Assembly (NCBI GenBank): GCA_938015525.1
Contig: CALLPC010000007.1
Location: 1 to 64,000, forward strand
Source of the DNA: an uncultured Dehalococcoidia bacterium
GTDB lineage: Bacteria; Chloroflexota; Dehalococcoidia; Tepidiformales; Tepidiformaceae
DNA length: 64,000 bases
Reading direction: 5' to 3'
How positions within the stretch are numbered: position 1 is the stretch's first letter; each line of letters opens with the position of its first letter. Below, one piece after another: positions 45,479-60,816 of this stretch. The notes under the pieces are model-generated. The model searched no databases. It was not told where the DNA came from and saw only the letters and a program-made list of their open reading frames with translations. A program made the position numbers and the translations under genes.

Positions 45479-45541
45479 CTCATTGCCATTGTAGGGGCCT
45501 CGCCCGCTCCGGTCGGGGCCATCCGGGCCGGGCTCCGCGAG

Positions 45542-45997: not shown

Positions 45998-46006
45998 GTT
46001 TCTCCG

Positions 46007-46036
46007 AGGATAGCCAACGTGCGACGATTCGGGCAA
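46007..46036 (-). promoter_or_regulatory. Putative promoter of tRNA-Glu (CTC)
   Basis: Minus strand TTGCCC (46031-46036) and TATCCT (46007-46012) with an 18-nt spacer; predicted start about 5 nt upstream of the tRNA. It overlaps the divergent region in front of the secreted metalloprotease-like gene. Confidence 0.55.
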
Positions 46037-46048
46037 GGTTCAAACGCT

Positions 46049-47308
46049 GTGGCGCGTCTACGACCGATGCTCCTTGCTACGCTGGCGTGTGCCGCGCTTG
46101 CGGGTGCCGCCTGCCGGGGCGGCGACACCGCGCATCCTGAGGCCGTCCCGCTCCCTGACGCCTACCGCCTGCTCCTCGAAGAGATTGCGGATGTTCGCGG
46201 CCTGCAGCCGCCTTCCTCGCTGCGAATCAGGGTGGTCGACCGCAATAGGCTGCCGCTGCTGCTGCGCGAAGAAGCGGTCCGCGACGACAGACACTTCGCC
46301 GGGGAACTGGACCGTCTCTATCGCCTGCTCGGTCTGCTCCAGCCGGGACAGGATTACGCCAGCGCGCGCCGGGCCCTCCTCGAGTCCGCTGCGGGCGCGC
46401 TCTACATCCCGGGCAGGCGGGAAATCTGGCTCATCCGAGAAGGCGAACTTCCCGCTTCGCCGAGCGACCTGGAACCCTGGGAACAACGGCTGCTCGCCCA
46501 CGAGTTCGTCCACGCGCTACAGGATTACCACTTTGATATCGAGCGGCTCCAGCGCAGGGCTGCAACGCTCGATAGTCACCTTGCCCTCGCCGCGCTCCTC
46601 GAAGGAGACGCGACCTGGACCGAGAGCCGATGGACCGCGCGGTATCTGATGCCCGGGCTTCAGCCGGGGCAGGCAACGGGACTGGAACCACCGCCTGCGG
46701 CTCCAGCCCCGCCGCCTGCTCTCGCGAGGGAGGCCGCGTTTCAGTACGTCAATGGCACTGAGTGGGTGAGCCTGCTGCTCGCAGACGACCCCAGTGCAGT
46801 CGACCGGCTGCTGCGGGAAGGCGGGCCAGCGGCTACGGCGCTCATCCTCCACCCCAACCTCGCGCGGACCGGCTGGCAGCCCGGCGGAGCGGCCCTCCCT
46901 CCCGGGCCGCCAGGGACGAACTGGCGAGTGGGCCAGGTTGAAACCGTCGGCGAGTTCCTGCTGGCGAGCTACCTCCAGACCGGTCTCCCGGCGCTGGCCG
47001 CGCTGCAGGCTGCCGCTGGCTGGGCGGCGGACGCCGCGCGCGCCTACGGCGCTCCGGGCGGCGATGCACTCGCGCTCCGCATCAGATTCACCGACCCGAA
47101 GGAAGCTGGTGAGTTCGCCGGCCGCCACCGGGACCTGCTCGGCGCGCGGGCACCCGCCGTTCAGCAGGAGCCAGGGCAGCTCGTGGCAACCCGGCGCGAT
47201 GGAGTGACGGTCATTCAGCTCGAGCCCGATGGGGCGCTCGTCACGCTCGTCTTTGCCGACACCGAGGCTGATGCGCGACTGCTCGCTGCGTTTCTTCGGA
47301 ACCGATGA
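46049..47308 (+). CDS. Secreted or lipoprotein-like HExxH metallopeptidase-like protein
   Basis: A 419-residue exported protein. A basic start (VARLRP) and hydrophobic LLATLACAALAGAAC look like a signal peptide, perhaps with a lipid-anchored Cys at about residue 22. The zinc site is LLAHEFVHALQDYHFD (HExxH-like: H-E-F-V-H) near residue 152. A likely Glu ligand follows in AALLEGDATWTE, as in gluzincins. The C-terminal half has a FLLASYLQ helix and a beta-rich end (VTVIQLEPDGALVTLVFAD). Substrate unknown. GTG 46049 gives the signal n-region; ATG 46067 is possible. Confidence 0.75.
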   Translation: MARLRPMLLATLACAALAGAACRGGDTAHPEAVPLPDAYRLLLEEIADVRGLQPPSSLRIRVVDRNRLPLLLREEAVRDDRHFAGELDRLYRLLGLLQPGQDYASARRALLESAAGALYIPGRREIWLIREGELPASPSDLEPWEQRLLAHEFVHALQDYHFDIERLQRRAATLDSHLALAALLEGDATWTESRWTARYLMPGLQPGQATGLEPPPAAPAPPPALAREAAFQYVNGTEWVSLLLADDPSAVDRLLREGGPAATALILHPNLARTGWQPGGAALPPGPPGTNWRVGQVETVGEFLLASYLQTGLPALAALQAAAGWAADAARAYGAPGGDALALRIRFTDPKEAGEFAGRHRDLLGARAPAVQQEPGQLVATRRDGVTVIQLEPDGALVTLVFADTEADARLLAAFLRNR

Positions 47309-47369
47309 GTCCCGAGCACTCGCAGCGCGGCACTGGATGGAGCAGCCCGGCCGCGTAGAATGCCGGCGC

Positions 47370-48329
47370 ATGGCAGATGACATCACGCTTCCCAGGTTCG
47401 ACCAGCTCCCGGCGGTGGACGGGGCACCGCCGAAATCCGCCTGGTGGCTCTTCGGCAGGGACGACCAGGTCGGTATGTTCAATCTCCAGACGCCCGAACG
47501 AATCGCCAGGGCGGCGCGGCTCGTGCAACGGGGCGCGATGTTTCCCCTCAACTGGAACATCGAGCTTCCGAATCCGCCCCTATTCAACCGGGGGGCCATC
47601 CGCCAGACGATTTTCGGCGGCGCCATTCACCACGACGACGTACTCGACAACTTTTACCCACAGGCAAGCAGCCAGTGGGATACGCTGGTCCACGTTGGCA
47701 ATTCGCAATACGGCTTTTACAACGGCATTCGGAAGGAAGACGTCACCGGGAAGCCGGGGTCGAAGGGCGGAATCGACCAGTGGGCGCGGCGCGGCATCGC
47801 CGGCCGGGCGGTGCTCCTCGACATCGGTCGCTACCTGGCATCGTGCGGCGAGCAGGTCGATTTCACGACTGACCGGCGCCTCTCGGTTGACGACCTCGAG
47901 GCGTGCCGGGAAGCGCAGGGCGTCGAGTTCGAAACCGGCGACGTGCTCCTCCTGCGGACCGGGTGGACCGAGTGGTACGAGGGGCTCGATGAGCGGGCGC
48001 GTGCCGGGCTCGCGAACATGGCAACGTTCCGCGCGCCAGGCATCGCGGCGGGCGAACCGATGGCGGAGTATCTCTGGAATCTCCGTATTTGCGCTATCGC
48101 CAGCGACCTGCCCTCCGTCGAGGCCTGGCCACCCAGGCGCGAACATGGCGGGTTCCTCCACGAATGGCTGCTCGGTCTGTTCGGCATCGCCATCGGAGAA
48201 CTCTGGAATCTCTCCCGGCTGGCAGCGGACTGCGCGGCTGACGGCCGCTACGAGACGTTCCTCGTCTCGGCGCCGCTGAACAAGACGGGCGGAATCGGGT
48301 CACCGCCGAACGCTATCGCCTTCAAATAG
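47370..48329 (+). CDS. Cyclase family protein (kynurenine formamidase-like fold)
   Basis: A 319-residue member of the cyclase/Arylformamidase (PF04199) superfamily. Of the classic HxGTHxDxPxH site it has the variant WDTLVHVGNSQYGFYNG seen in one subgroup, plus the domain ends GDVLLLRTGWTEWYEG and AIASDLPSVEAWPP. Function is probably hydrolysis of an amide or lactone; substrate unknown. TAGAAT (47356-47361) ends 8 nt before ATG 47370, so leaderless. A TetR gene lies convergently downstream. Confidence 0.85.
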   Translation: MADDITLPRFDQLPAVDGAPPKSAWWLFGRDDQVGMFNLQTPERIARAARLVQRGAMFPLNWNIELPNPPLFNRGAIRQTIFGGAIHHDDVLDNFYPQASSQWDTLVHVGNSQYGFYNGIRKEDVTGKPGSKGGIDQWARRGIAGRAVLLDIGRYLASCGEQVDFTTDRRLSVDDLEACREAQGVEFETGDVLLLRTGWTEWYEGLDERARAGLANMATFRAPGIAAGEPMAEYLWNLRICAIASDLPSVEAWPPRREHGGFLHEWLLGLFGIAIGELWNLSRLAADCAADGRYETFLVSAPLNKTGGIGSPPNAIAFK

Positions 48330-48368
48330 GAAGGTATTTCGGAAGCGGATTCAGCCAGGAGCGTAGGG

Positions 48369-48995
48369 TCAGCCGTCACCCTCGGCGAACATCGGCAATC
48401 GCCGCATGAGGTGAGAGACAAGGGCATCCTCGGCATGGCGGGCGGCCAACTCGAGCTCGAAGCCGTCCTGGTCGAGCAGCCACTGGAACACGATGCCGAT
48501 GACGGTGCCGATATGGTTCGCGGCGGCAGCCTCAGGGTCGACGTCGAGCCGGAAGAAGCCGTTCCGCTGGCCGTCACGGATGGCGCCGGCGACGCCGCGT
48601 CGGAAGTCACGGTAGAGGTCGCGCAGCCGGTCGGCGAGCTGCGGCTCGGTGCGGGCGCTCGCGGTGAAGTGGAGGAAGACGTCGTAGGTCAGGGCTTCCT
48701 TCCGGGCCATAAGAATCGCAGTACGCGTCACCATCCGGAGACGGTAGACGGGGTCGAGGCCGGGGCCGATGGAGACGGCGACTGTATCCACGAAGACCTC
48801 ACGGCAGCGCTCGAGGACGCCGGCGAGGAGGGCGGCCTTGTCCCCGAAGTGGTAGGAGACGAGCCCGCGGCTCACGCCCGCGGCCTTGCTAATCTCCTCG
48901 ATGGAGGCTTCCTGCCAGCCCTTCTGCCCCATGACCCGGACGGTGGCATCGATGATCTGGCGGCGCCGCTCGGCCGTGACGCTGGAACGTCCCAT
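48369..48995 (-). CDS. TetR-family transcriptional regulator
   Basis: A 208-residue TetR/AcrR regulator. The HTH is RRQIIDATVRVMGQKGWQEA, SIEEISKAAGVSRGLVSYHF, and the C-terminal ligand domain has YDVFLHFTASARTEPQLADR, as in the BetI-like/TetR_C_6 group. ATG 48995. A partial inverted repeat lies about 64 nt upstream (49059-49078) and may be its operator. Whether it controls the cyclase or the hydrolase gene is unknown. Confidence 0.88.
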   Translation of the reverse strand: MGRSSVTAERRRQIIDATVRVMGQKGWQEASIEEISKAAGVSRGLVSYHFGDKAALLAGVLERCREVFVDTVAVSIGPGLDPVYRLRMVTRTAILMARKEALTYDVFLHFTASARTEPQLADRLRDLYRDFRRGVAGAIRDGQRNGFFRLDVDPEAAAANHIGTVIGIVFQWLLDQDGFELELAARHAEDALVSHLMRRLPMFAEGDG

Positions 48996-49058
48996 CTGGT
49001 GGACTCCGGGAAGACGGGTACGCGCTAGGGGCCGGTCGCGTCCGGCGCCACTTTACCA

Positions 49059-49078
49059 TTTCGATCGATGTACCGAAA
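49059..49078. promoter_or_regulatory. Inverted repeat, candidate TetR operator
   Basis: TTTCG (49059-49063) and CGAAA (49074-49078) flank a 10-nt core; 7 of 10 positions are symmetric. It sits between the TetR gene and the 3' end of the hydrolase gene. Position fits an autoregulatory site; untested. Confidence 0.35.
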
Positions 49079-49108
49079 CATCCCGCAATGCGGGCATCGT
49101 CGGGGCGT

Positions 49109-49963
49109 TCAGCCGGCCGTCCACGCGCCCGCTACCGAACGCCCGGCTTCGACATCATCGAGGAAGCGAAGCGTTTCCCGCGCGAACGCTTGGGGCGCGA
49201 GAACGGGTACCCCGTGACCCGTGCCCCGGAAGGTGACCACGCGGGCTTCAGGGAGCTCGGCCGCCATGACCCGAGAGGCGCTCCGCACCGGGTCCTCTTC
49301 GCCGATGGCGATGAGCACCGGCACGGTGACTCGTTCGCGAAGCTGCGGCAGGAGGTTCGGGCGCTCCTTGCGTACCCGTGCGCAGCCGAGCCAACCCGCG
49401 GCGGAAAGCCTCGCATACCGTTCCCGAACCCCCCGGGCAAGGAACGGGTCGCCGAGGGAGGCTGCCAGCCGCTTCCCGAGTTCAGCCGTCCCGAACTTGC
49501 GGACGATTTCGGTCGATGCGTCGATGTCCCGTTCACGGTTCCAGTAGTGCTCGTCGTAATCCGGGTGGGCGTAGGCCGCAGAGGTATCGCTGAGGACGAG
49601 CGCCGCAAGGCGGCCCGGCCAGGTTACCGCGAACTGGAGCGCAATCATGCCGCCGAAGCTGGAACCAACGAGGGCACACAGGTCTATGCCGAGGTGGTCG
49701 AGCAGGGCCCGGACATCGGCTGCCAGTTTCTCTGCCGCATAGGCGTCGAGGTCCTCCGGCGCGCTACTTCGGCCGTGTCCCCGAAGGTCCAGGGCTACGA
49801 CGAAATACCGCCTGGCGAATTCGCCGACGAGCTCATACCACATGCGGAGGTCACTCGTGAACCCGTGCAAAAGGACCACGGCCGGGGCCGCGGGGTCGCC
49901 TGCCGTTTCGTACGCGAACGTGAGGCCTTCGTGGTCGAACGTCTGCACCGGCTGATGGAACAC
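49109..49963 (-). CDS. Alpha/beta-fold hydrolase
   Basis: A 284-residue alpha/beta hydrolase. HG oxyanion motif VVLLHGFTSDLRMW, ALDLRGHGRSSAPEDL, nucleophile Ser in ALVGSSFGGMIALQF (G-x-S-x-G as GSSFG), the acid in IAIGEEDPVRSAS, and the base His in FRGTGHGVPVLAP. A 3-oxoadipate enol-lactonase/epoxide-hydrolase-like esterase is plausible; substrate unknown. GTG at 49963 starts the fold; a longer frame to 50038 overlaps the divergent mannosidase by 2 bp and is less likely. Confidence 0.85.
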   Translation of the reverse strand: MFHQPVQTFDHEGLTFAYETAGDPAAPAVVLLHGFTSDLRMWYELVGEFARRYFVVALDLRGHGRSSAPEDLDAYAAEKLAADVRALLDHLGIDLCALVGSSFGGMIALQFAVTWPGRLAALVLSDTSAAYAHPDYDEHYWNRERDIDASTEIVRKFGTAELGKRLAASLGDPFLARGVRERYARLSAAGWLGCARVRKERPNLLPQLRERVTVPVLIAIGEEDPVRSASRVMAAELPEARVVTFRGTGHGVPVLAPQAFARETLRFLDDVEAGRSVAGAWTAG

Positions 49964-50036
49964 CGGAGGGCCTGAAGGCGCAAGCCACGAGAATGCCCGC
50001 GTACAATCGGGGGCTACTCCCCTGCCGGGAGACGCC

Positions 50037-52805
50037 ATGGAACGGACCGTCTACGTCGTCCCGCATACGCACTGGGACCGGGAATGGTATCAGCCGCACG
50101 AGCTCTTTCGCTGGCGGCTCGTCCAGATGATCGACGAGCTCCTTGAGCATATGGAGCGGCACCCGCAGTACCGCTGCTTCAACCTCGATGGCCAGAGCAT
50201 CGTCATCGCGGATTATCTCGAGCTCCGACCGGAGAACGAAGGCCGGCTCCGCGCGCTCATCGAGGCCGGCCGCGTCGTCATCGGGCCGTGGTGGGTGCAG
50301 CCCGATGAGTTCCTGCCCTCGGGCGAATCCCACATCCGAAGCCTCCAGCGCGGCATCCGGTTCGCAGAACGGATGGGAGGGGGCCTCCGTATCGGCCACT
50401 GCGCCGACCAGTTCGGCCACGTCGCCCAGATGCCGCAGTTGATGCGCCAGCTCGGTCTCACGAGCGCCTGTCTCTGGAGGGGTGTACCGGACAGCATCCC
50501 GGGCTGGAGCTTCTGGTGGGAGGCACCAGACGGTACACGCATCCCCGTCCTGTACCTTCGGAACAGCTACTCGAGCGGGTGGCGGCTGCCGACCGATGTT
50601 GAAGATTTCCTCGAGCGTGTTCGCCGGCAGGAACGCGACCTCCGCGAAGGGCTGCCCGCGCTGCTCATGAATGGTACTGACCATTCACGGATGGAGCCGC
50701 ACGTACCGGGTCTCCTGGCCCGGGCTGCGGGGCACGGCTACCGGTTCGAGATGGCGACCCTCGCCGAGTACGAGCGCGCGGTTCTCGCCGCCGGCATCGA
50801 CGAGGTCATCCACCGGGGCGAACTCCGCTCCGCGGACCGCTCGAACGTGCTCGCAGGTGTGCTCTCGTCGCGCATGGTCATCAAGCAGCGGGATTTCGAG
50901 GTGGCGCGCGCCCTCGAACGGTACGCAGAGCCGCTTGAGCTGCTGGCGCACCTCCACGGCGGACCGGACGGCTCCCCCGCATTGCGGCACGCCTGGAGCC
51001 TCGCCCTCGAAAACACGCCGCACGATTCGATCTGCGGCTGCAGCGTGGACCAGGTGCACCGAGAGATGCTGCCGCGTTACGACCGGGCGGAACAACTGGC
51101 GGTGCAGGTCGCCCGCGATTCGGCCGCCCACCTCATCCGGCGGATGGACGTGCCGGCACAGGGAGGCCTCGCCGTTTTCCGGCCGGTGCAGGGCGCACCG
51201 GCTGCCATCCAGGCCAATGTACCTGCAGCGTGGGCGGCGTTCGATGGGCTGCGGCTGCCGGGCGGCGAGGTAGTCCCGTTCACGCTGGAGCCGCTCAGCG
51301 GCGGTGCCGAGCTCCTCCGTGAAGGGGTCTCACCGGCGGGAGCGCTGCGCCACCTGGACTTCCTCCGCGAGCAGCGGTACGACGTCCACGCCATCGAGGC
51401 GATGGAATGGGAACTGAGCGACAGGCAGCTGCGGGTCACGACGACGGTCGGCCCCGACATCACTGTTATCGATGACGAGGGGTTCCGCCGGGAGGTCCGC
51501 ACCATCGTCCGCGCCGGGGTGGCCGAGACGGCCGAGGTCGTCGTGCGCGAGAGCGCGCGGGCGCAGCTGACGGCAGCCCTCCCGCCGGCGCAGGCGGTTG
51601 GGCTCGAGCTGGCCATCCCGGTCTACAGCCCGGCGGCAGCACCGGAAGCAGCTCCAGGAAACAGGCGGATTCACTCCGGACGCTTCGATGTTCGCCTCAT
51701 CGGCGCTTCGCTTCGCATCCGCGACCGGGAGACCGGACTTGACCTGGACCCGGGGCTGGTGTTCATCTCCGAAGGAGACCGCGGAGACGAATACAACGCC
51801 GATATCCTCGATGACGCGGTCGATGAGCCCGCCTCCCTCACGGTACACGGAACCGTCAGCACGCCCGCCTGGCAGGAACTGCGCTTTACGCCGGCCTACG
51901 ACCTCCCGGCGCGCCTCGGAGCGAAGCGCCGCCGCCGCACGCGTCGGGAGCGAGTGCTCCAGCCGGTCGCCGTCGCCGTCCGGGTTTGGTGGGGGCTGCC
52001 CGTCGTTGAATTCCGCGTCGCGGTGGAGAACCTCGCCCAGGACCACCGGTTGCGGGCGCTGATTCCGCTGCCTTTCGAGCCGGAACGGCTGCTGACCGAA
52101 AACCACTTCCATGTGGCCGAGCGTCCGCTGGCGCCGCCGCCCTGGAACGGGGTGAGCGCCGAACGACCGCCCTCGACCTTCCCGCAGAAGACCTTTTCGG
52201 CCGTGGAACGGGAGGACCGCGGCCTGGCTCTGTTCAACCGCGGCCTTCCCGAAGGCGAACTCGTCGACTGGCGTGGCCAGAAGGCCCTGGCCGTTACCCT
52301 CCTCCGGTGTGTTGGCTGGCTCTCGCGGCCGGACCTGCGCAGCCGCCGGGGCGGCGCCGGGCCGACGGTCCAGACCTTCGACAGCCAGTGCCTCGGTCGC
52401 CACGAATTCGCCTTCGCCCTCGCCCCGTATGCGGGCAGCTGGCACACAGCCGGCATCCTGCGGCTGGCCCACGCGTGGGCGTTTCCGCCCATCGGGTGGG
52501 CGACGAACGGGCACGAAGGCCCGCTTGGGAGTTCCCTTCCGCTAGTGCGGACCGGGGACGCGGTGCACCTCAGCGCGGCCTATCGGAGCGAGGTCGACGG
52601 CGCACCGGCGGTACGCGTCTACGCCGGCCCGGAGGGCGGGCCGACGGTCGTCGATGCCCCGGCCCTCAGTCCCGCCGTCGCGGACCGGGTGGACCTCCTG
52701 GAGCGGAACCCGGCGCCGATAGACGGGGATGGCGGGCGGTGGACCGTCCTGCTCCGGCCGTGGGAGATTGCGACGGTCCGTTTCGAAGCCGGGAAACGCC
52801 CGTAG
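50037..52805 (+). CDS. Alpha-mannosidase-like glycoside hydrolase, family 38
   Basis: A 922-residue retaining GH38 enzyme. The N-terminal zinc site is VVPHTHWDREWY (His10, His12, Asp14 region). The nucleophile Asp124 is in RIGHCADQFGHVAQMP. A later metal/active-site region is NTPHDSICGCSVDQVHREM, followed by the GH38 helical and beta C-terminal domains, with the extended loop EGDRGDEYN. Relatives include mannosylglycerate hydrolase MngB and lysosomal-type mannosidases, so the substrate may be mannosylglycerate or mannosides. No signal peptide, hence cytoplasmic. ATG 50037 has GGGAG about 6 nt upstream. The murJ gene starts 25 nt after it ends. Confidence 0.93.
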   Translation: MERTVYVVPHTHWDREWYQPHELFRWRLVQMIDELLEHMERHPQYRCFNLDGQSIVIADYLELRPENEGRLRALIEAGRVVIGPWWVQPDEFLPSGESHIRSLQRGIRFAERMGGGLRIGHCADQFGHVAQMPQLMRQLGLTSACLWRGVPDSIPGWSFWWEAPDGTRIPVLYLRNSYSSGWRLPTDVEDFLERVRRQERDLREGLPALLMNGTDHSRMEPHVPGLLARAAGHGYRFEMATLAEYERAVLAAGIDEVIHRGELRSADRSNVLAGVLSSRMVIKQRDFEVARALERYAEPLELLAHLHGGPDGSPALRHAWSLALENTPHDSICGCSVDQVHREMLPRYDRAEQLAVQVARDSAAHLIRRMDVPAQGGLAVFRPVQGAPAAIQANVPAAWAAFDGLRLPGGEVVPFTLEPLSGGAELLREGVSPAGALRHLDFLREQRYDVHAIEAMEWELSDRQLRVTTTVGPDITVIDDEGFRREVRTIVRAGVAETAEVVVRESARAQLTAALPPAQAVGLELAIPVYSPAAAPEAAPGNRRIHSGRFDVRLIGASLRIRDRETGLDLDPGLVFISEGDRGDEYNADILDDAVDEPASLTVHGTVSTPAWQELRFTPAYDLPARLGAKRRRRTRRERVLQPVAVAVRVWWGLPVVEFRVAVENLAQDHRLRALIPLPFEPERLLTENHFHVAERPLAPPPWNGVSAERPPSTFPQKTFSAVEREDRGLALFNRGLPEGELVDWRGQKALAVTLLRCVGWLSRPDLRSRRGGAGPTVQTFDSQCLGRHEFAFALAPYAGSWHTAGILRLAHAWAFPPIGWATNGHEGPLGSSLPLVRTGDAVHLSAAYRSEVDGAPAVRVYAGPEGGPTVVDAPALSPAVADRVDLLERNPAPIDGDGGRWTVLLRPWEIATVRFEAGKRP

Positions 52806-52830
52806 CCAGGGACCGCCGTAGCATGCGCGC

Positions 52831-54438
52831 ATGTTGCCCAGCGCTCACGGGAAGCGAACCGTACGGTCCGCGAGCGGCGGCCTGGCGCTGGCCGCGGTCA
52901 TCGTGGCCTTTGGGTTCATCGGCTCCCGGCTTCTCGGCATCATCCGCACCATCGTCATCGCGAACGCGTTCGGCGCTTCGCCGGAACTCGACGCCTACAA
53001 CGTCGCCTTCCGCATCCCGGACCTGATTTTCCAGGTGCTCGCCGGGGCGACGCTGGGGAGCGCTTTCATCCCGGTGTTCGCCCGCAAGTTCGAACGGGAA
53101 GGCGCCCCCGAGGCCTGGCTGCTCGCAAGCCGGGTGCTGAATCTCGTCGTCCTGGCGACGGCACTGCTCTGCTCCGGGGCGTTCGTCCTGGCACCGAGGC
53201 TCGTGCCGGCGATTGCACCGGGCCTCGGCGACGACATCGGCCGCTCTGAGGAGCTGACCGCGACTGCCGTCCGGTTGACTCGCGTGATGCTGCTCTCGAC
53301 GCTGCTCTTCGCAGCGAGCGGCATGCTCACGGGCATGCTCAACGGGCGGGAACGCTTCCTCCTGCCGGCGCTCGCCCCGATGGCCTATAACCTCGGCATC
53401 ATCTTTGGAGCGGTCGCACTGGCCGACCGGTGGGGCGTGAACGGGCTCGCCTTTGGCGTGGTGCTCGGCGCCGCGATGCACCTCGGCATCCAGGTGCCCG
53501 GTGTGTTCGCCGAAGGGTTCCGTTACCGGCTCTCGCTCGGCTGGGGCGAACCGGCCGTGATGGAGGTCGCCCGGTTGATGGCGCCGCGCGTCGTCGGGCT
53601 CGCGGCGGCACAGGTGAATTTCGTCGTCACGGGCTTCTTCGCCTCGAAGGTGGGCGCCTCGGCGATTTCGAACATCACCTACGCCTGGCTGCTGGCCGGG
53701 CTCCCGCTGGCGATATTCGGGATGGCGCTCTCGACTGCCGTCTTTCCGCGGCTCGCGGGGCAGGTCGCGCGGGAAGAGCTGGACGAGCTGAACGTGACCG
53801 TGTCGCGGGTGCTGCGGCTCATCATGTTCCTGACAATTCCGGCGGCACTTGGCCTCGCCATGCTCCGCGAACCCGCAGCGATCACGCTGCTCGAACGCGG
53901 CGCGTTCACCCGCGCTGATTCGCTGATGACGGCTGCTGCGCTGGGCTGGTACTGCCTCGGCATCGTCCCGCAGGCAGGGACCGAAATCCACAGCCGCGGC
54001 TTCTACGCGCTGGGAGATACCCGGACGCCGGTGGCGCTGGCCGTCGCGGCCGTCGGCGTCAACCTCCTGCTCGGGGCACTCGTGTGGGAACCCTTCGGCG
54101 TGGGCGGACTGGCCTTTGCCGTGGGTGCCGCCTCATGGGCGGAGTGGCTGGGACTGTACGCGCTCTTCGTCCGCCGGACCGGCTGGAACGCCGCAGAAGA
54201 CCTGGGCGCGATCGCGAGGGTCGCGCTCGCTGGCGCACTGATGGCCGCGGTCCTCGCTGCAGCCACCGTCGTGCTGGGCTCCGAACGCCGGTCCGATGCA
54301 GCGGTTACCGCAGCGGCCGGCGTTGCCGTTGGGGGGCTGTGCTACGCCGCCGTATGCCGGGCACTCGGGGTTCCCGAACTGGGCGACGTTACCGCCCGGC
54401 TGGTGGCGCGGATTCGCCGAGCACCGGTCGGGGGGTGA
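52831..54438 (+). CDS. murJ: Lipid II flippase MurJ
   Basis: A 535-residue polytopic protein (about 14 helices) of the MurJ/MviN family that flips lipid II to the outer face for peptidoglycan synthesis. Family segments are GFIGSRLLGIIRTIVIANAF, LIFQVLAGATLGSAFIPVFA, NGRERFLLPALAPMAYNLGI, NVTVSRVLRLIMFLTIPAAL, and GDTRTPVALAVAAVGVNLLL. It makes biological sense with murI nearby on the chromosome. ATG 52831 has TAGCAT (52819-52824) 6 nt upstream, so it probably has its own leaderless promoter even though the mannosidase ends 25 nt before. The 3' end overlaps the convergent hydratase by 50 bp. Confidence 0.95.
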   Translation: MLPSAHGKRTVRSASGGLALAAVIVAFGFIGSRLLGIIRTIVIANAFGASPELDAYNVAFRIPDLIFQVLAGATLGSAFIPVFARKFEREGAPEAWLLASRVLNLVVLATALLCSGAFVLAPRLVPAIAPGLGDDIGRSEELTATAVRLTRVMLLSTLLFAASGMLTGMLNGRERFLLPALAPMAYNLGIIFGAVALADRWGVNGLAFGVVLGAAMHLGIQVPGVFAEGFRYRLSLGWGEPAVMEVARLMAPRVVGLAAAQVNFVVTGFFASKVGASAISNITYAWLLAGLPLAIFGMALSTAVFPRLAGQVAREELDELNVTVSRVLRLIMFLTIPAALGLAMLREPAAITLLERGAFTRADSLMTAAALGWYCLGIVPQAGTEIHSRGFYALGDTRTPVALAVAAVGVNLLLGALVWEPFGVGGLAFAVGAASWAEWLGLYALFVRRTGWNAAEDLGAIARVALAGALMAAVLAAATVVLGSERRSDAAVTAAAGVAVGGLCYAAVCRALGVPELGDVTARLVARIRRAPVGG

Positions 54439-55246
54439 GCCCGGGACGCTCGCCTCGGAGCCCCCGGAGTGCGAGCTCGACGCCACCGAGCCTGCGGCCC
54501 CCTTTCGTCCGGGCTTCGCCCCGGTTCGCCATCATCACGAGATAGTCCGATAGGCCGGCATCGAGGAAAGCGCTGTAGCCCATGAGGTCCTGAGCCCGGT
54601 TCGCAGCGGCCTTCGAGAGGCGCACGACCACCGGGTTGTTCTCGGCGACCCGGAGGGCGTAGCCCACGGTTTCGCGTTCGAGGTCTTCCGATTCGAAGAC
54701 GCGATTGACGAACCCGAGCTCGCATGCCTCCTCGGCCGTCAGGAAGCGGCTCTCGAACATGAGCTCCTTGGCTTTGCGGATGCCGACGTCAAAAGGAAGG
54801 GAGAAGTACTCGAGCATCGCGGGCAGAAAGAGCGCGTCCCGGGCAGCGAAGACGATGTCGACGCAGGCCGCCATCATCCACCCGGCGAAGATACAGAACC
54901 CCTCCACCATGGCGATGGTCGGCTTAGGGGCGTTTCGCCATTTCACGAGGATGTCGAGGTTGTAGTGGCGGAAGTTCTCGTAAAACTCGATGCCAGCTTC
55001 GCCAATCCCCCGGGCTTCCCGGTCGGCGAGCTGTTCCGGCGTCCCCAGGTCGTGGCCGCTGGAGAAGTTGCCCCCGGCGCCGCGGGTAATGATGACGCGA
55101 ACGGCCGGGTCCGCGACAGCGAGGTCCATCGCGCGGTCGTATTCATCGAGGAGCCGCCACGACTGGGCGTTCCGATACTGCGGCCGATTGAAGGTAATCC
55201 AGGCGAGCGGGCCGTCGACCCGGTACTCGATGTCGCGGAACTCCAC
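54389..55246 (-). CDS. Enoyl-CoA hydratase/isomerase (crotonase) family protein
   Basis: A 285-residue crotonase-fold enzyme. Oxyanion-hole segments: AWITFNRPQYRNAQ, the GGNFSSGHDLG glycine-rich turn, and KPTIAMVEGFCIFAGWMMAA. The usual catalytic Glu pair is not clearly matched (FSSGHDLGT; EFFSLPFDVGIRKAKE-like), so the reaction could be other than hydration. Lys-rich RAQDLM region and a C-terminal RGLRGERP tail. ATG 55246 with GAGGAGA upstream. Likely in fatty-acid or aromatic acyl-CoA metabolism with the ligase at 27242 and the carboxylase at 40825, but not adjacent to them. Confidence 0.88.
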   Translation of the reverse strand: MEFRDIEYRVDGPLAWITFNRPQYRNAQSWRLLDEYDRAMDLAVADPAVRVIITRGAGGNFSSGHDLGTPEQLADREARGIGEAGIEFYENFRHYNLDILVKWRNAPKPTIAMVEGFCIFAGWMMAACVDIVFAARDALFLPAMLEYFSLPFDVGIRKAKELMFESRFLTAEEACELGFVNRVFESEDLERETVGYALRVAENNPVVVRLSKAAANRAQDLMGYSAFLDAGLSDYLVMMANRGEARTKGGRRLGGVELALRGLRGERPGLTPRPVLGESAPPAGR

Positions 55247-55365
55247 GAGAGTCTCCTCGGAGCGGTGGGCCGGAGTGTACCCGGGACGGGGACGCCTTGC
55301 GAATTCACCGGGCGGTGAGCAGCCCGTACCATGAGCGGAAATGTTTGTCGCACCGGGAGCGCCCT

Positions 55366-56403
55366 ATGGAGGCCTACAACATCACCGTCGTCGGCGCGAG
55401 CGGCATCGTCGGCCGGGAGTTTCTTAAAATCCTCGACGAGCGGCAGGTGCCCGTCGGCAGGCTCCGGCTGCTGGCAACCGCCCGCTCGGCCGGCAAGACG
55501 CTCGTATTCCGCGGCGCGGAGATCGTGATCGAGGAGACGGCGCCCGAGAGCTTCACGCCGGACGACCACATCGTTTTCCTCTCGGCCTCTGGCTCGGCGT
55601 CGAAGCAGTATGCACCGATTGCCGCCGCCAACGGCAGCTTCGTCATCGATGATTCGAGCGCGTTTCGGATGGACCCGGAGGTGCCGCTGGTCATCCCGGA
55701 GGTAAACCCGGAGGACCTGGAGTGGCACCGGGGCATCGTGAGCCAGCCAAACTGCACCACGACGCCGATGGTGCTCGCGCTTGCGCCGATTCACCGCGTG
55801 AACCCCTTGCGGCGCGTCATCGTCAGCACGTACCAGGCCGTTGCCGGCGCTGGCGCGGCAGCTGTGGAAGGGCTTCGGAAAGAGACCGCAGCGGCCCTCG
55901 CCGGGCGCCGCGAGCCAAGCGGCACCCAGAAAAGAGAAATCGCCTTCAATGCAGTGCCCCAGATCGACCAGTTCGCCGACGACGGCTACACGAAAGAAGA
56001 GCTCAAGATGGCGAACGAAACGCGCAAAATCCTCCACGCTCCCGAAGTCGGTGTGAGCGCCACGTGCGTGCGCATCCCGACCTTCTTCGGCCACGCGATG
56101 AGCGTCTGGGCAGAGTTCGAGCGGCCAGTCTCGGTCGAGGAGGCGCGGGCGCTGATGACGGCCGCTCCCGGGGTGGAGCTCATGGATGACCCGGCGGCCG
56201 AGCAGTACCCGACGCCAATGGATGTCGCAGGGACCGACCGCGTGCTCGTCGGCAGGCTGCGGCCGGACCATTCGCGGCCGGGGGCCATCGCCTTCTGGAC
56301 GGTGACGGACAGCATCCGGAAGGGGGCAGCGACCAACGTGGTCCAGGTCATCGAGGAAGCGGCCCGCCGGGGGCTGATACGACCGCGCGCCCGGGTCCGG
56401 TAA
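55366..56403 (+). CDS. asd: Aspartate-semialdehyde dehydrogenase
   Basis: Forms aspartate semialdehyde for lysine, threonine, methionine and diaminopimelate. The 345-residue protein has NADP-binding ITVVGASGIVGREFLKILDE, the catalytic Cys in GIVSQPNCTTTPMVLAL, VSTYQAVAGAGAAAVEGL, the active-site Arg/His region CVRIPTFFGHAMSVWAEFE, and the C-terminal substrate-binding DRVLVGRLRPDHSRPGAIAFW. ATG 55366 is preferred. Likely monocistronic. Confidence 0.94.
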   Translation: MEAYNITVVGASGIVGREFLKILDERQVPVGRLRLLATARSAGKTLVFRGAEIVIEETAPESFTPDDHIVFLSASGSASKQYAPIAAANGSFVIDDSSAFRMDPEVPLVIPEVNPEDLEWHRGIVSQPNCTTTPMVLALAPIHRVNPLRRVIVSTYQAVAGAGAAAVEGLRKETAAALAGRREPSGTQKREIAFNAVPQIDQFADDGYTKEELKMANETRKILHAPEVGVSATCVRIPTFFGHAMSVWAEFERPVSVEEARALMTAAPGVELMDDPAAEQYPTPMDVAGTDRVLVGRLRPDHSRPGAIAFWTVTDSIRKGAATNVVQVIEEAARRGLIRPRARVR

Positions 56404-56473
56404 CGCCACCCAAACGCTCTCCTATAGGCCGGAGCTCTGCCATAATGCGGACCAATACCTTTGGAGTTCGCAC

Positions 56474-57451
56474 ATGGCATTCACGGTCAACCCCGACAAG
56501 TTCCGCTACCCGCCTGAGTTCGGTGCAGGCGTCAAGGGCAAGCGAGTTCTCATCTCGGGCGCAGGCAAGGACGGCGGCCTCGGCCAGTCGTTTGCACTTG
56601 CCGCCGGCCTCAATGGCGCAGAGAGCGTCGCCGTCCATTTTCACTCGTCGTATGACGATGGTCTCGACCTCGTCGATTACCTGCGCAGCCAGGGGGTGAA
56701 TGCCTTCCCGCTCCAGGCCGACGTGACGAACATGGGTGACCTCTGGGCGAGCCGCAGTTATGTCATAGAGAAGATGGGCGGCATCCCCAATCTCGTCATC
56801 TGCAACTCGGGCCTGACCGAAAAGGGCTACTCCTTCGGCCGCGCGCTGCGCGAAATCGAGGGCGAATCCATGGCGATGCGGCGCGCCCGCGTGCGGCAGG
56901 CGTTCATCAACAACCTGAACGAGACGCGGCTCGTGCTCGACACGAAGATCGATGGGTTCATCGCGATGACCCACCTCTGGTCGGGCGAGGCGGTCTACGC
57001 GAACGAGCCGATCCAGTTTGTCTACATCTCATCCCGTCAGGCGATCGACCCTGGCGTCAGCGTCCCGGGCTACGCCATCGCCAACTGGGCCGTGCTGCAG
57101 CTCCCGAAGGTGCTGCAAGTCAACCTCGGGCGGAGCGCCGACCTCGTGTCGGCGTACTCGGTCCTCTATCCGTTCGTTCGGACCGGGATGACGAACGAGT
57201 ATGCCGAGAATCCCAAGGTCTTCGGCCGGTGGCAACCGCGCATGCTGGAGACCCACGAAGCCGCCGAGGGGTTCATGCAGCTCCTCGCGCAGCCGAAAGA
57301 GGTCACCAACCAGGGGATGTTCGAGGCCATCGTCGAACCCCTCCCCGAGCGGGGCGACCGGGCAGTGAGGTTCACGTGGAAGCAGGTGAAGTTCACCATC
57401 GAGGAAGAGCTCACCCCGTTCAGCGCCCGGCACCCGCTCGAATTCGCGTAG
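56474..57451 (+). CDS. Atypical SDR-fold protein (enoyl-ACP-reductase-like or divergent SDR)
   Basis: A 325-residue Rossmann SDR-like protein. The nucleotide motif is KRVLISGAGKDGGLGQSFAL, more like FabI/SDR variants than TGxxxGIG. VHFHSSYDDGLDL and QADVTNMGDLWA follow, and NSGL replaces NAG. The catalytic-like region is FVYISSRQAIDPGVSVPGYA followed by I-A-N-W: the expected YxxxK is Y200-A-I-A-N204, with Asn for Lys. About 60 residues longer than classical SDRs, with a C-terminal extension ending RHPLEFA. A CATAAT hexamer and a 25-nt leader with TTTGGAG precede ATG 56474. Function uncertain. Confidence 0.78.
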   Translation: MAFTVNPDKFRYPPEFGAGVKGKRVLISGAGKDGGLGQSFALAAGLNGAESVAVHFHSSYDDGLDLVDYLRSQGVNAFPLQADVTNMGDLWASRSYVIEKMGGIPNLVICNSGLTEKGYSFGRALREIEGESMAMRRARVRQAFINNLNETRLVLDTKIDGFIAMTHLWSGEAVYANEPIQFVYISSRQAIDPGVSVPGYAIANWAVLQLPKVLQVNLGRSADLVSAYSVLYPFVRTGMTNEYAENPKVFGRWQPRMLETHEAAEGFMQLLAQPKEVTNQGMFEAIVEPLPERGDRAVRFTWKQVKFTIEEELTPFSARHPLEFA

Positions 57452-57942
57452 TCGACGATAACTGCTACGGGAGCCCAGCGACATTCTGTCGACTTCGAAC
57501 CCGGCCGGGCGGCCTCTCTTCGGCTAGTGTCAACGCTTCGTGAAAGCGACGGCGACGTGTCATAAATTGCTTGGCCGGCGACAGGGTGTCTCGCTACATT
57601 GCCGCCCGTTGGAGGCGGGGTAGTCGGGTGCGCAGGCCGGCGCAGCGGACACGCCCCGCTTGCGCCGGTCCCGGGTCGGTGTCACGGCGCCGTCCCGGGG
57701 CACCGCCGGGCCGGCTGGCGCAGGAGTATTCCGGGCGCAGCAAAGGCCGGCAGGCCGGGGCACCGCCCGTTCCGCAGGTGGGCCCAGCGCCCGATAGTCG
57801 CGCTCCAACCTTCGCAAGGGGCCACTCTCGCCTCCAGGGGGCGCGGGGTGGCCCCTTCGCCTGTCGTCCTTCTCTTTGCTCATAGGCAGAGAGGGGCAGG
57901 GCGCGCTAGCATCCGGGGCATACTGTCGCAGGGGGTGCGCAC
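57452..57942 (+). other. 490-bp non-coding GC-rich gap
   Basis: No credible protein gene is seen; frames here are Arg/Pro-rich shadow sequence. The central part (57608-57857) is unusually rich in inverted repeats (see the structured RNA candidate). A possible -35/-10 pair, TTGGCC (57571-57576) and TACATT (57595-57600) with an 18-nt spacer, stands just before that region. The last 85 nt hold the leader of the biotinyl carrier gene, with a TAGCAT hexamer at 57907-57912. Confidence 0.6.
57608..57857 (+). ncRNA. Candidate structured non-coding RNA, no family recognised
   Basis: Nested complementarity is visible. An outer pairing joins GTTGGAG (57608-57614) to CTCCAAC (57803-57809). Inside it TCGG (57624-57627) and GCGC (57630-57633) pair with CCGA (57791-57794) and GCGC (57787-57790). 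Between these are local hairpins: 57637-57648 with 57656-57668 (12 bp, one bulge); CCCGGG repeats near 57670-57675 and 57694-57699; and a nested GCCGGC/GCGC/GGA-GTAT-TCC hairpin near 57711-57752. A 10-bp perfect stem, AAGGGGCCAC (57816-57825) with GTGGCCCCTT (57848-57857), closes the 3' side like a terminator. High GC alone can produce pairs, so this needs covariance support. Strand is inferred from the promoter-like pair. Confidence 0.45.
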
Positions 57943-58158
57943 GTGGGCTCCGAGCTACCTTCCCCAATGACCGGCACCGTCAAGGAGGTCCTCACTCGCC
58001 CCGGTGAGCGAATTGCGCCCGGCCAGGAGGTCTTGATCGTCGAGGCGATGAAGATGGAGCTGCCGGTCGAGGCCGAATCGGGCGGTACGGTCGCCGAGGT
58101 GCTCGTCCAGCCAGGGGACCGGGTGGAGCAGGGCCAGGCACTTTTGCGGCTGGCCTGA
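57943..58158 (+). CDS. Stand-alone biotinyl (BCCP-like) carrier domain
   Basis: A 71-residue single biotinyl/lipoyl domain: SPMTGTVKEVLTRPGERIAP, biotin Lys in VEAMKMELPVEA, and GGTVAEVLVQPGDRVEQGQA. EAMKME is the biotin-specific motif. It would be the carrier subunit of a biotin-dependent carboxylase or decarboxylase whose BC and CT parts are elsewhere; the carboxylase at 40825 carries its own. GTG 57943 with AGGGGGTG about 5 nt upstream. A short membrane protein and Usp/TrkA genes follow. Confidence 0.88.
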   Translation: MGSELPSPMTGTVKEVLTRPGERIAPGQEVLIVEAMKMELPVEAESGGTVAEVLVQPGDRVEQGQALLRLA

Positions 58159-58192
58159 GCGGCCGTTTGCGCGTCGGCATGGCCGGCGTAGC

Positions 58193-58390
58193 ATGAGCGG
58201 TGGACTCGTCGCCCGCCTCGCCATGCGCACTGCCAACCTCGTGTTCTCCGTCATTTCGATCGTCCTCGGCGTCGTCCTGATCCTCTTCCTTCTCACCCAG
58301 GCGGTAGAGTGGAACATCGGGATGGCGATAGGCGTCGTCCTCATCCTGAACGGCGCCGTACGCCTCTGGTTCGCACAGGACGACCGCTGA
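58193..58390 (+). CDS. Small two-helix membrane protein, unknown function
   Basis: A 65-residue protein with two membrane helices: LVFSVISIVLGVVLILFLLT and IGMAIGVVLILNGAVRLWFA. The N-terminal SGGLVARLAMR is short and basic. Likely an accessory or structural membrane peptide; no family recognised. ATG 58193 overlaps a TAGCAT hexamer, so ATG 58226 (internal Met) might be the real start. It lies between the biotinyl carrier and Usp genes. Confidence 0.55.
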   Translation: MSGGLVARLAMRTANLVFSVISIVLGVVLILFLLTQAVEWNIGMAIGVVLILNGAVRLWFAQDDR

Positions 58391-58425
58391 GCAGCGCGGG
58401 GCGCGAAAGGGGGAGCAGCAGCCTG

Positions 58426-58893
58426 ATGGAAGCGTGGCAGACGTTCCTCGTCCCGGTCTCCGGAGACCGCGCGAGCATGGAGGCTATCGCCGTGGCGGCA
58501 GCGGCCGCGAGGGTCCGTCGCGGACGGCTGAACCTTTTGCACATCATCCAGGTCAGCCGGTCCATGCCGCTGAACGTCGAGCTCGAACAGGAGTCCCGGC
58601 GGGCGCAGCAAATCATCGAGAAGGCCGAGGCCATCGCCGCCGAGCTTGGCTGCCAGGGCGTACGCTCCCTCGTCGTGCAGGCGCGCGAGGCGGGGCCCGC
58701 CATCATCGAGGAAGCGCGAGCGCAGAAGGTTGACGTCATCGTTCTCGGCCTGCCGCCGTTCGAAGGAGAGGACCGCCCGTTCACGCTCGGGCAAACGGCG
58801 GAGTACCTGCTCCGCCACGCTCCCTGCGAGGTCTGGCTCATCCGCCGGCCGATGCGCGATGCTAACCGCGGAGGAGGTCACGAGACGCGATGA
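58426..58893 (+). CDS. Universal stress protein family
   Basis: A 155-residue UspA-fold protein: TFLVPVSGDRASMEAIAVAA, a middle helix, then IIEEARAQKVDVIVLGLPPF and HAPCEVWLIRR. The ATP-binding G-2x-G-9x-G(S/T) motif of ATP-type Usp is not clear (GLPPFEGEDRP), so it may not bind ATP. First of three overlapping or adjacent genes Usp-RCK-RCK. ATG 58426, with AAAGGGGGAG about 10 nt upstream. Its 3' end overlaps the next gene by 4 bp. Confidence 0.85.
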   Translation: MEAWQTFLVPVSGDRASMEAIAVAAAAARVRRGRLNLLHIIQVSRSMPLNVELEQESRRAQQIIEKAEAIAAELGCQGVRSLVVQAREAGPAIIEEARAQKVDVIVLGLPPFEGEDRPFTLGQTAEYLLRHAPCEVWLIRRPMRDANRGGGHETR

Positions 58894-59303
58894 ACGTCGT
58901 CATCATGGGCTGCGGGCGCCTCGGCTCGCGCATCGCGACCATGCTCGAGCGCCAGGGCCACGCCGTCACGGTCATCGATATCACCGAGAGCGCGTTTCGG
59001 CGGCTCCCGGAGGGCTTCGGCGGCCGCCGGGTCGTCGGCAACGGTATGGACCTCGCGACGCTCGAGCGAGCAGGCATCCGCGAGGCGGATGCCTTTTTTG
59101 CCGTAACCCAGGGCGACAACCGGAACTACTTCGCGAGCCAGGTGGCCCGTGAGATTTTCGGCGTCCGCCGGGTCCTCTGCCGCGTGTACGACCCGGTCCG
59201 GGAGAGCATCTTCCGGGACCTCGGCATCGAAACGTTCAGCCCAACCAGCTACGGGGCGCAGGTCATGGTCGATATGCTCCTCAACGAGCCAGTGCGGAGG
59301 TAG
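58890..59303 (+). CDS. Single RCK_N (TrkA-N) domain protein
   Basis: A 137-residue stand-alone Rossmann RCK domain: NVVIMGCGRLGSRIATMLER, VTVIDITESAFRRLPEGF, FFAVTQGDNRNYFASQVARE. No RCK_C domain. Similar domains bind NAD(H), ATP or ADP. It overlaps the Usp stop (ATGA) and is followed after 3 nt by a full RCK protein, so the two may form a heteromeric ring. Confidence 0.88.
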   Translation: MNVVIMGCGRLGSRIATMLERQGHAVTVIDITESAFRRLPEGFGGRRVVGNGMDLATLERAGIREADAFFAVTQGDNRNYFASQVAREIFGVRRVLCRVYDPVRESIFRDLGIETFSPTSYGAQVMVDMLLNEPVRR

Positions 59304-59306
59304 CCC

Positions 59307-59981
59307 GTGTACATCATCGTTGGCGGCGGCGGGAAAGTCGGCTTCCACCTCGCTCTCGAACTGATCCAGCAAGACCACGAAGTACTCGTCATCGAGCAGG
59401 ACCCGAACCGGGTCGCGAACATCCGGGAGGAACTGGCGGGCAACGTGCTGTTCGGCGATGCCTGCGAGGCAACCACGCTCGACGCTGCCGGCGTGAGCCG
59501 GGCCGATTTGGTCGCCGCCGTCACGGGCGACGACGAAGACAACCTCGTCATCTGCGATATCGCACGCTACCGAGGTGTGAAGCGGACGATTGCGCGCATC
59601 AATAATCCCCGGAATGAATTGATCTTCCGGAAGCGCGGCATCGAAACGACCATCTCGGCGACCCAGGCCGTGCTTGCGCAGATCGAGCAAGAGCTCCCGA
59701 CTCAGGCGATGATCCCGCTGCTCCAGCTCCACTCGGGGCTCGAACTCATCGAGGTCAAGCTCCCCGAGACTTCACCCGTCGTCGGCCGGTCGGTCCGGGA
59801 GATTTTGCTGCCGGCGGAGTCACTCATCTCGCTCATCGTCGACCCGGGCGGCGTGCCGAGAATGCCGAGCGGCGACACCCGGCTCCACGCCGGCGACGCT
59901 CTCGTCGTGGTCGCCCCGAAGGAGAGCCTCGACATGCTGCGGGAGCAGCTCGTCGGGTCGACCCATGGGCTGGATACCTGA
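59307..59981 (+). CDS. TrkA-like RCK_N-RCK_C protein
   Basis: A 224-residue protein. RCK_N is YIIVGGGGKVGFHLALELIQ, VLVIEQDPNRVANI, LVAAVTGDDEDNLVICDIAR; RCK_C is at about 140-220 (PVVGRSVREILLPAESLISL and DALVVVAPKESLDML). No membrane channel gene is next to it, unlike the KtrA-like gene at 30375. GTG 59307; pheA starts 14 nt after its stop (59995) in the same direction, so it could be part of the operon. Confidence 0.9.
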   Translation: MYIIVGGGGKVGFHLALELIQQDHEVLVIEQDPNRVANIREELAGNVLFGDACEATTLDAAGVSRADLVAAVTGDDEDNLVICDIARYRGVKRTIARINNPRNELIFRKRGIETTISATQAVLAQIEQELPTQAMIPLLQLHSGLELIEVKLPETSPVVGRSVREILLPAESLISLIVDPGGVPRMPSGDTRLHAGDALVVVAPKESLDMLREQLVGSTHGLDT

Positions 59982-59994
59982 TGCAGGGGCCGGC

Positions 59995-60816
59995 ATGACG
60001 CGGATCGCCTACCTGGGACCGCCTGGCACGTTTGGCGAGCTCGCCGCTCTGCAGTTCGACGCCGGGGCCGAGCTGATGCCGTTCCCCTCCCACGCCGCCG
60101 TGGCAGCAGCCGTGGAGTCAGGCATGGCCGACCTCGGCATCGTCGCGATCGAGAACCTCATCAGCGGTTCCGTACAGGAAACGCTCGACATCCTCATTCA
60201 CGAGACGGACCTGACTATCCAGTCCGAACTCATCGTGCCGGTGCGGCACAACCTGGTCGCAAAGCCCGGCACCCGCCCGGCTGAGGTCCGCGTGATTTTT
60301 TCGCACCCGCAAGCCTTGGGCCAGTGCCGGAAGTTCCTGGAGCGGTGCTTCCCCCGAGCCCAGGCAGAAGCCGCTCTGTCGACGACGGAGGCCGTCGAAC
60401 TGGCGCTGAAGCGGGACGGCGACGCCGCGGCCATCGCGACTGAGCGCGCCGCAGAACTGCTGGGCGCCGAGGTCCTCGCTCGGGACATCCAGGATTCGGA
60501 GAACAACGTAACCCGGTTCCTGGTGCTCGGCCGCGGGACGCCGAAGCCGACGGGCCGCGACCGGACCTCGATCGCATTCACCTTCGCCGAGGACCGGCCC
60601 GGGGCGCTCGCCAGCGTCCTGAACGCCTTCGCCGATGCAGGTATCAACTGCAACAAGATCGAGAGCCGGCCCACGAAGGCTACGCTCGGCGACTATGTCT
60701 TTCTCATCGACTTCGAAGGGCACCAGGAGGACCCCAGAGTCCGGGTTGTGCTCGACCGAATCCGTCCGCTTTGTGCAGAGCTGAAGGTCTTCGGCAGCTA
60801 TCCCCGGGCGCTTTGA
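59995..60816 (+). CDS. pheA: Prephenate dehydratase
   Basis: Converts prephenate to phenylpyruvate for phenylalanine. The 273-residue protein has an N-terminal PDT domain, RIAYLGPPGTFGELAALQFD, and IVAIENLISGSVQETLDILI. Its catalytic region NNVTRFLVLGR holds the conserved Thr-Arg-Phe. A C-terminal ACT domain (SIAFTFAEDRPGALASVLNA, then NCNKIESRPTKATLGDYVFL) gives feedback inhibition by Phe. The usual GTFSExA is GTFGELAA. ATG 59995. The chorismate mutase part is absent (monofunctional). Confidence 0.94.
   Translation: MTRIAYLGPPGTFGELAALQFDAGAELMPFPSHAAVAAAVESGMADLGIVAIENLISGSVQETLDILIHETDLTIQSELIVPVRHNLVAKPGTRPAEVRVIFSHPQALGQCRKFLERCFPRAQAEAALSTTEAVELALKRDGDAAAIATERAAELLGAEVLARDIQDSENNVTRFLVLGRGTPKPTGRDRTSIAFTFAEDRPGALASVLNAFADAGINCNKIESRPTKATLGDYVFLIDFEGHQEDPRVRVVLDRIRPLCAELKVFGSYPRAL

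What the first reader, a model, noticed from the sequence alone, without database searches (positions are those of the whole stretch)
57608..57857. Possible novel structured RNA between an SDR gene and a biotinyl carrier gene
The 490-bp gap has no gene but contains nested pairings: a long-range 7-bp helix, a second inner helix, three local GC hairpins and a 10-bp 3' hairpin. A promoter-like pair sits just upstream. I looked for hallmarks of RNase P, tmRNA, SRP, 6S and common riboswitches and saw none. It may be an independent RNA or a long cis-leader of the biotinyl carrier gene.
Basis: partly seen in the sequence, partly recalled or inferred. Interest (0 to 1): 0.6.

Follow-up and report, generated by a model that had tools for sequence, protein, structure and literature searches.

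The report
New structured RNA family in Tepidiformales
The gap holds a gene for a previously undescribed folded RNA that is not translated, has its own conserved promoter and terminator-like end, and is found as a single copy in most sampled relatives of the bacterium Tepidiforma; what it does is unknown.

Summary
The window is from a Tepidiforma species (Chloroflexota). Position 57608 is the predicted transcription start of a 249-nt unit: closing helix P1, internal loop, helix P2, a GC-rich branched interior, then a terminator-like hairpin. It folds better than all 200 shuffles (z -3.9). Rfam 15 matches neither it nor 17 homologous loci. The element gives one strong hit in 24 of 38 family genomes (E down to 2e-26), with five shortened copies in other genomes; none was found outside the family. 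Promoter, start, first 14 nt (GUUGGAGGCGGGGU) and P1/P2 are conserved, while the whole enclosed RNA ranges from 109 to about 390 nt. Changes on both sides of pairs support P1, P2, inner arms and the terminal hairpin; an excess of G.U over A.C marks the + strand as the RNA. It is not a leader of the biotinyl gene, which is absent or distant in most genera. RNase P lies elsewhere; 6S and Ro/Y-RNA membership failed. Function is not shown; a trans-acting, probably protein-bound RNA is the best guess. There is no transcript evidence.

The parts
57530..57544 (+). conserved upstream box TCAA-N6-GTGAA (TCAACGCTTCGTGAA), about 64 nt before the start site
   Evidence: TCAA and most of TTYGTGAA invariant or nearly so in 12 aligned loci of 4 genera, seen again in further genera; role as activator or UP element is inference
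57559..57569 (+). conserved box GTCATAAATTG directly upstream of the -35 element
   Evidence: GTCATAA invariant in 12 loci; the box plus CTTGG is essentially unique in each genome searched
57571..57576 (+). -35-like element TTGGCC
   Evidence: CTTGG conserved at fixed distance (18 or 17 nt) from TACATT; not called by a consensus scan
57595..57600 (+). -10-like element TACATT
   Evidence: TACATT or a close variant at a fixed distance in the 12 aligned loci; replaced by a TAACCT-like hexamer in the most distant genus
57608..57856 (+). the noncoding RNA, predicted start G57608, 249 nt to the end of the terminal hairpin
   Evidence: start inferred 8 nt after the -10; homologous unit in 24 of 38 family genomes plus weaker copies; z -3.9
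57608..57615 (+). P1 5' strand GUUGGAGG; with the next six bases CGGGGU the most conserved stretch of the RNA
   Evidence: 3 substitutions on the 5' strand against 29 on the 3' strand over 21 sequences
57802..57809 (+). P1 3' strand GCUCCAAC
   Evidence: pairs with 57608-57615; U-A/C-G/U-G changes at pair 2
57616..57623 (+). internal loop, 5' side (CGGGGUAG; CGGGGUGG in most relatives)
   Evidence: conserved
57795..57801 (+). internal loop, 3' side (UAGUCGC; UAGACNN in most relatives)
   Evidence: alignments and sequences
57624..57631 (+). P2 5' strand UCGGGUGC
   Evidence: both-sided changes U-A/C-G, G-C/A-U, C-G/G-C in relatives
57787..57794 (+). P2 3' strand GCGCCCGA
   Evidence: partner of 57624-57631
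57636..57669 (+). interior arm 1 (GGCCGGCGC...GCGCCGGUC); in many other genera an arm with a symmetric GGGAA/GGAAA internal loop stands at this place
   Evidence: fold; covariation of the arm in other genera, 100% of cells paired
57675..57693 (+). interior hairpin A with hexaloop UCACGG (57682-57687), loop invariant in genera g1 and g8
   Evidence: U-G/A-U/G-C and C-G/G-C changes in the stem
57818..57855 (+). terminal hairpin GGGGCCAC...GUGGCCCC, terminator-like
   Evidence: 6 of 10 pairs with both-sided changes, 98% of cells paired; followed by a U run in several other genera, e.g. L127, L138, L142
56474..57451 (+). upstream neighbour: SDR protein (not part of the RNA)
   Evidence: Pfam adh_short; near the RNA only in Tepidiforma and genus g8
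57943..58158 (+). downstream neighbour: biotinyl carrier protein (not part of the RNA)
   Evidence: Pfam Biotin_lipoyl; adjacency not general in the family

Best explanation
57608-57856 (+) is the gene of an independent, structured, noncoding RNA restricted to the family of Tepidiforma. Shown by comparison: a conserved promoter with two upstream boxes, a fixed start, a closing platform (P1, internal loop, P2) around a variable branched interior, and a terminator-like hairpin. Inferred: it is transcribed and acts in trans. The invariant first 14 nucleotides plus the P1/P2 platform would be the site that binds a conserved partner, more likely a protein than an mRNA, and the fast-changing interior arms would be accessory. 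Within this reading I put about 0.45 on a protein-bound RNP, 0.2 on regulation of RNA polymerase as 6S does, 0.15 on base pairing with target RNAs through the 5' end, and the rest on something else.
For: Thermodynamic excess on + only. Homologues: pattern, 0 in reversed controls; R2, single strong hit in each of 24 family genomes, E 2e-26 to 1.3e-6, counting the copy cut by a record end; whole units read. Covariation: 12 pairs changed on both sides against 5.8 +/- 1.3 shuffled and 2-7 slid; 7 against 3.6; 90% of cells paired against at most 56% slid; arm 1, 100% against at most 57%. Strand: G.U 20 against A.C 6 and 30 against 7. Free-standing: different neighbours in different genera and own terminal hairpin. 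Not coding: length 109 to about 390 nt and a 1-nt indel between close relatives L138/L139. No Rfam hit in 17 homologous loci.
Against: No RNA-seq; expression and both ends are predicted. In this window the promoter and terminator fail simple consensus scans. The covariation sets A5 and A6 were laid out by hand, which leans towards the structure. The interior is poorly alignable across genera, so no single full-length consensus exists. The platform is only 12 to 14 pairs, and some genera (L085, L136) keep it with mismatches; in G020 and G015 the 3' half is unclear. The partner is entirely unknown.
Confidence: 0.75

Rival explanations
1. A cis-acting leader or attenuator of the biotinyl carrier gene: the terminal hairpin would stop or allow transcription into the gene.
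For: The RNA lies just upstream of a biotinyl gene in Tepidiforma and in three other genera (g3, g14, and g11 where the copy is degenerate). In this window the terminal-hairpin loop CGCCUCC is complementary to the 5' GGAGGCG.
Against: In genus g8 about 1.6 kb separates them, and no biotinyl gene was found within about 1.5 kb in g4, g2, g5, g10, g12, g13, g16, g17, g18. The loop/5'-end complementarity is not kept in other genera. A terminator-like hairpin follows the RNA in nearly all copies read.
Confidence: 0.06
2. A lineage-specific counterpart of 6S RNA: it would bind RNA polymerase and tune transcription.
For: Single copy, own promoter, ends closed by a helix with an internal loop, and no 6S RNA found by Rfam in six genomes of the family.
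Against: 6S is a rod with one large central bubble; this is branched and 109 to about 390 nt long. The Rfam 6S model exceeds its cut-off in only 4 of 14 control genomes, so absence says little. No Rfam 6S signal at the locus even at E 5.
Confidence: 0.12
3. A base-pairing regulatory RNA whose invariant 5' end GUUGGAGGCGGGGU pairs with mRNAs or rRNA.
For: The 5' strand of P1 has 3 substitutions and its partner strand 29 in 21 sequences, so the sequence itself matters beyond pairing.
Against: The 5' end is locked in P1 in the predicted fold. Sites like the 5'-end motif (up to two mismatches, both strands) in the own genome were about as frequent as with the reversed control pattern, although this is not a proper target search.
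Confidence: 0.12
4. The element is part of the replication origin (DNA site or primer RNA).
For: In three complete Tepidiforma chromosomes the RNA lies at the GC-skew switch: G003 (RNA 1.832 Mb, switch 1.80-1.85 Mb), G001 (RNA 2.353 Mb, switch 2.34-2.44 Mb), and G004, whose record starts inside the element.
Against: In G022, another genus, the skew is positive on both sides of the RNA. The three Tepidiforma genomes share gene order, so they are one observation. No cluster of DnaA boxes and no dnaA signature was found nearby.
Confidence: 0.04
5. Ordinary intergenic GC-rich sequence whose folding is a by-product of base composition.
For: 78% GC makes stable folds easy.
Against: z -3.9, compensatory changes, fixed promoter/start/hairpin order over a dozen genera.
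Confidence: 0.01

Closest known systems
Large orphan structured bacterial RNAs (for example OLE, GOLLD, ROOL, HEARO, raiA; comparison from general knowledge)
   Same: long, highly structured, noncoding, lineage-restricted, function mostly unknown, separate gene
   Different: no Rfam family matches; here only a short closing platform and the 5' 14 nt are constant while the length varies more than threefold
6S RNA (RF00013)
   Same: single-copy, 5' and 3' ends pair, internal loop near the closing stem
   Different: branched interior, no rod with central bubble, no model match
Ro/Y RNAs (with Rsr, TROVE domain)
   Same: conserved closing stem with an internal loop and variable interior module
   Different: no TROVE protein in nine genomes tested; no Rfam match
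RNase P RNA type A (RF00010)
   Same: size range and branched fold
   Different: the real RNase P RNA is elsewhere in the same genome at G000:C21:9155-9523, E 1.8e-92

Membership tests
6S RNA | match to RF00013 covariance model | tested here: not met
   no match at the locus up to E 5; none over cut-off in six family genomes
6S RNA | rod-like fold with a large central bubble mimicking open promoter DNA | tested here: not met
   predicted folds are multi-branched with a short asymmetric internal loop near the ends
6S RNA | binds RNA polymerase holoenzyme and templates product RNA | not testable with these tools
   needs biochemistry
RNase P RNA | match to RF00010; single gene per genome | tested here: not met
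   found at another place in G000, G003 and G012
tmRNA | tRNA-like ends and tag reading frame (ARAGORN, RF00023) | tested here: not met
   ARAGORN finds no tmRNA in the window; no Rfam match
SRP RNA | match to bacterial SRP models | tested here: not met
   no match at the locus or in 17 homologous loci
Y RNA | host encodes Ro60/Rsr (TROVE, PF05731) | tested here: not met
   0 of 9 genomes; control rings in Deinobacterium
Riboswitch or protein-responsive leader | constant position directly upstream of a regulated gene | tested here: not met
   neighbouring genes differ between genera
Independent structured ncRNA | covariation of predicted helices | tested here: met
   with the caveat that A5 and A6 were laid out by hand
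Independent structured ncRNA | own promoter and terminator | tested here: met
   conserved promoter and hairpin in the well-conserved copies; predicted, not mapped
Independent structured ncRNA | discrete transcript of about 250 nt | not testable with these tools
   no RNA-seq available

The most novel reading that the evidence does not exclude
A new class of housekeeping or global regulatory RNP RNA, near universal in the order Tepidiformales, which takes the place of an RNA (such as 6S) that these bacteria seem to lack.
Probability: 0.12. Interest if true: 0.75.

Novelty: new variant of a known kind. Interest (0 to 1): 0.55.

Why it matters
It adds a structured RNA family that current covariance libraries miss, with boundaries, promoter and a conserved 5' motif precise enough to test at once by RNA-seq and pull-down in cultured Tepidiforma. 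A constant platform around an interior that makes the RNA vary from about 110 to 390 nt within one family of bacteria is also a useful case of rapid RNA evolution.

Tried and rejected
Short 5' motif search over the class: too noisy, about equal to control. Covariance model R1 built on truncated sequences: recovers only the 3' half because it cannot span the interior, though it gave the true G008 copy. Phylum search with R2: one hit outside the family, L144 (E 4e-4), covers only part of the model, lacks the conserved promoter and was judged chance. Promoter-box regulon: no other site except a one-mismatch site in G003. T-box-like GCAGGGUGGUACCGG in genus g8: not present in other genera and no Rfam T-box match. 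A short ORF starting at GUG after GGAGG: the GUG is lost in this window and the frame breaks between L138 and L139. Alternative pairing of the terminal loop with the 5' end: not conserved. Replication-origin role: the position coincides in Tepidiforma only. Weak Rfam hits (Giardia U1, mir-1538, snoZ206, RcsR1, BjrC68) are far below gathering scores and judged chance. The scan of viral contigs for the biotinyl protein gave nothing. In one search the L126 core was cut out wrongly (1726 nt) and its values are ignored. Paper searches found no description (open-access PMC only).

Full report
Setting. The window belongs to a Tepidiforma species: the SDR protein next to the gap is 93-97% identical to Tepidiforma proteins, including T. 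flava, and NCBI places the genus in Tepidiformaceae, Tepidiformales, Chloroflexota. The gap 57452-57942 lies between an SDR gene and a 71-aa biotinyl protein, both on the + strand.

The observation. The + strand of 57600-57860 folds at -170.2 kcal/mol, 3.9 standard deviations below shuffles; the - strand only 1.6. Rfam 15 gives nothing at gathering level, and at E 5 only two hits far below their cut-offs, judged chance. In this sequence alone a sigma-70 scan and a terminator scan both miss the promoter and the 3' hairpin, so the decisive evidence is comparative.

Homologues. DNA similarity found the gap in other Tepidiforma genomes, and reading the loci showed a constant pattern: GTCATAA box, CTTGG, 17 or 18 nt, TACATT, 7 or 8 nt, then GTTGGAGGCGGGG. 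The gapped pattern hits exactly once in 11 of 38 family genomes and never in the reversed control; G004 has it too, cut by the start of its record. A sequence-only model of promoter plus 5' end (R2) then gave single strong hits (E 2e-26 to 1.3e-6) in 24 of 38 family genomes over 13 of the family's 18 genera; in G015 the RNA part is degenerate and in G020 its 3' side is unclear. Weaker hits in a 14th genus, g13 (E 0.003 to 0.09), proved by inspection to be five shortened copies of 109-110 nt with the same ends and a strong U-tailed terminator. No convincing hit lay outside the family among the rest of the 393 class genomes or in a 400-genome phylum sample; the single phylum hit was chance. These large runs used stricter filters, so weak distant copies could be missed.

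Anatomy. The well-conserved copies start with GUUGGAGGCGGGGU (the first base or two vary in two copies). This pairs as P1 with a CCUCCAAC-like 3' strand, leaves an internal loop (CGGGGUGG against UAGACNN), and continues as P2 (UCGGG.. with ..CCCGA). Inside are one to several arms. In many genera the first arm is GGCG-GGGAA-(A)GGCC...GGCC(U)-GGAAR-CGCC with a symmetric purine loop; in Tepidiforma and genus g8 a later hairpin has an invariant UCACGG hexaloop. The unit from start to the end of P1 ranges from 109 to about 390 nt. After P1 follows a terminator-like hairpin, with a U run in several genera but not in this window.

Covariation. On 12 sequences with four helices, 12 pairs changed on both sides, against 5.8 +/- 1.3 in shuffles and 2 to 7 in slid controls; 89% of cells pair against at most 57% slid. 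On 21 sequences for P1 and P2 alone: 7 pairs against 3.6, 90% against at most 56%. For arm 1 in other genera, 100% of cells pair with three pairs changed on both sides. The sets were laid out by hand from the sequences, which favours the structure; one search used MAFFT on truncated sequences. G.U cells exceed A.C cells 20 to 6 and 30 to 7, as expected if the + strand is the RNA. The 5' strand of P1 has 3 substitutions and the 3' strand 29, so the 5' sequence is held by something more than pairing.

Not coding, not a leader. Length changes and a one-base indel between close relatives L138 and L139 speak against an ORF. In genus g8 the biotinyl gene is 1.6 kb away; in G008 neither it nor the SDR gene is near; elsewhere the neighbours differ (neighbours read from translations by eye, without a family search). 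The adjacency to the biotinyl gene in genera g1, g3, g14 and possibly g11 may be ancestral.

What it is not. RNase P RNA is elsewhere. 6S was not found in six genomes, but that model is insensitive. No TROVE protein, so a Y RNA is unlikely. ARAGORN finds no tmRNA here. No Rfam family, including SRP, matches in 17 homologous loci.

A lead that failed. In three complete Tepidiforma chromosomes the RNA sits at the GC-skew switch that usually marks the origin, and the G004 record even starts inside it. In another genus (G022) the RNA is not at a switch. The position is therefore most likely a property of the Tepidiforma gene order, not of the RNA.

Function. Nothing here shows a function. Single copy, its own conserved promoter with upstream boxes, and an invariant 5' motif argue for a selected trans-acting RNA. 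I favour a protein-bound RNA, with 6S-like and base-pairing roles as live alternatives. Paper searches (open-access PMC only) found no earlier description.

Noticed in passing
window 44000-60000; G003:C1 about 1.80-1.85 Mb; G004:C1 start/end; G001:C1 about 2.35 Mb: The region of this RNA coincides with the GC-skew switch (probable replication origin) in three complete Tepidiforma chromosomes, yet a regular-expression search found no dnaA signature within about 170 kb to the left and 220 kb to the right in G003, nor in the window.
   Followed up: partly
window 57452-57545: Upstream of the promoter several further boxes (CGACGATAA, TTCTGTC, in other genera also ACATAAG) are conserved over 100-150 bp, more than a simple promoter needs; they may bind a regulator.
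   Followed up: partly
L125-L133, L080-L085 (about 30-60 nt into the RNA): In many genera the first interior arm carries a symmetric purine internal loop GGGAA/GGAAA between covarying helices, which Tepidiforma itself lacks.
   Followed up: partly
L036 downstream of 5972: In H3_CFX4 (G022) a tmRNA-like gene (GGGGACGAAAGGATTCGACAGG...GTTCAACTCCCCCGCGTCTCCACC) follows the SDR homologue, while the RNA of this report lies more than 1 Mb away on the same contig.
   Followed up: no
window 15882-15994: A PyrR binding site (RF00515, 58.5 bits) is present elsewhere in the window.
   Followed up: no
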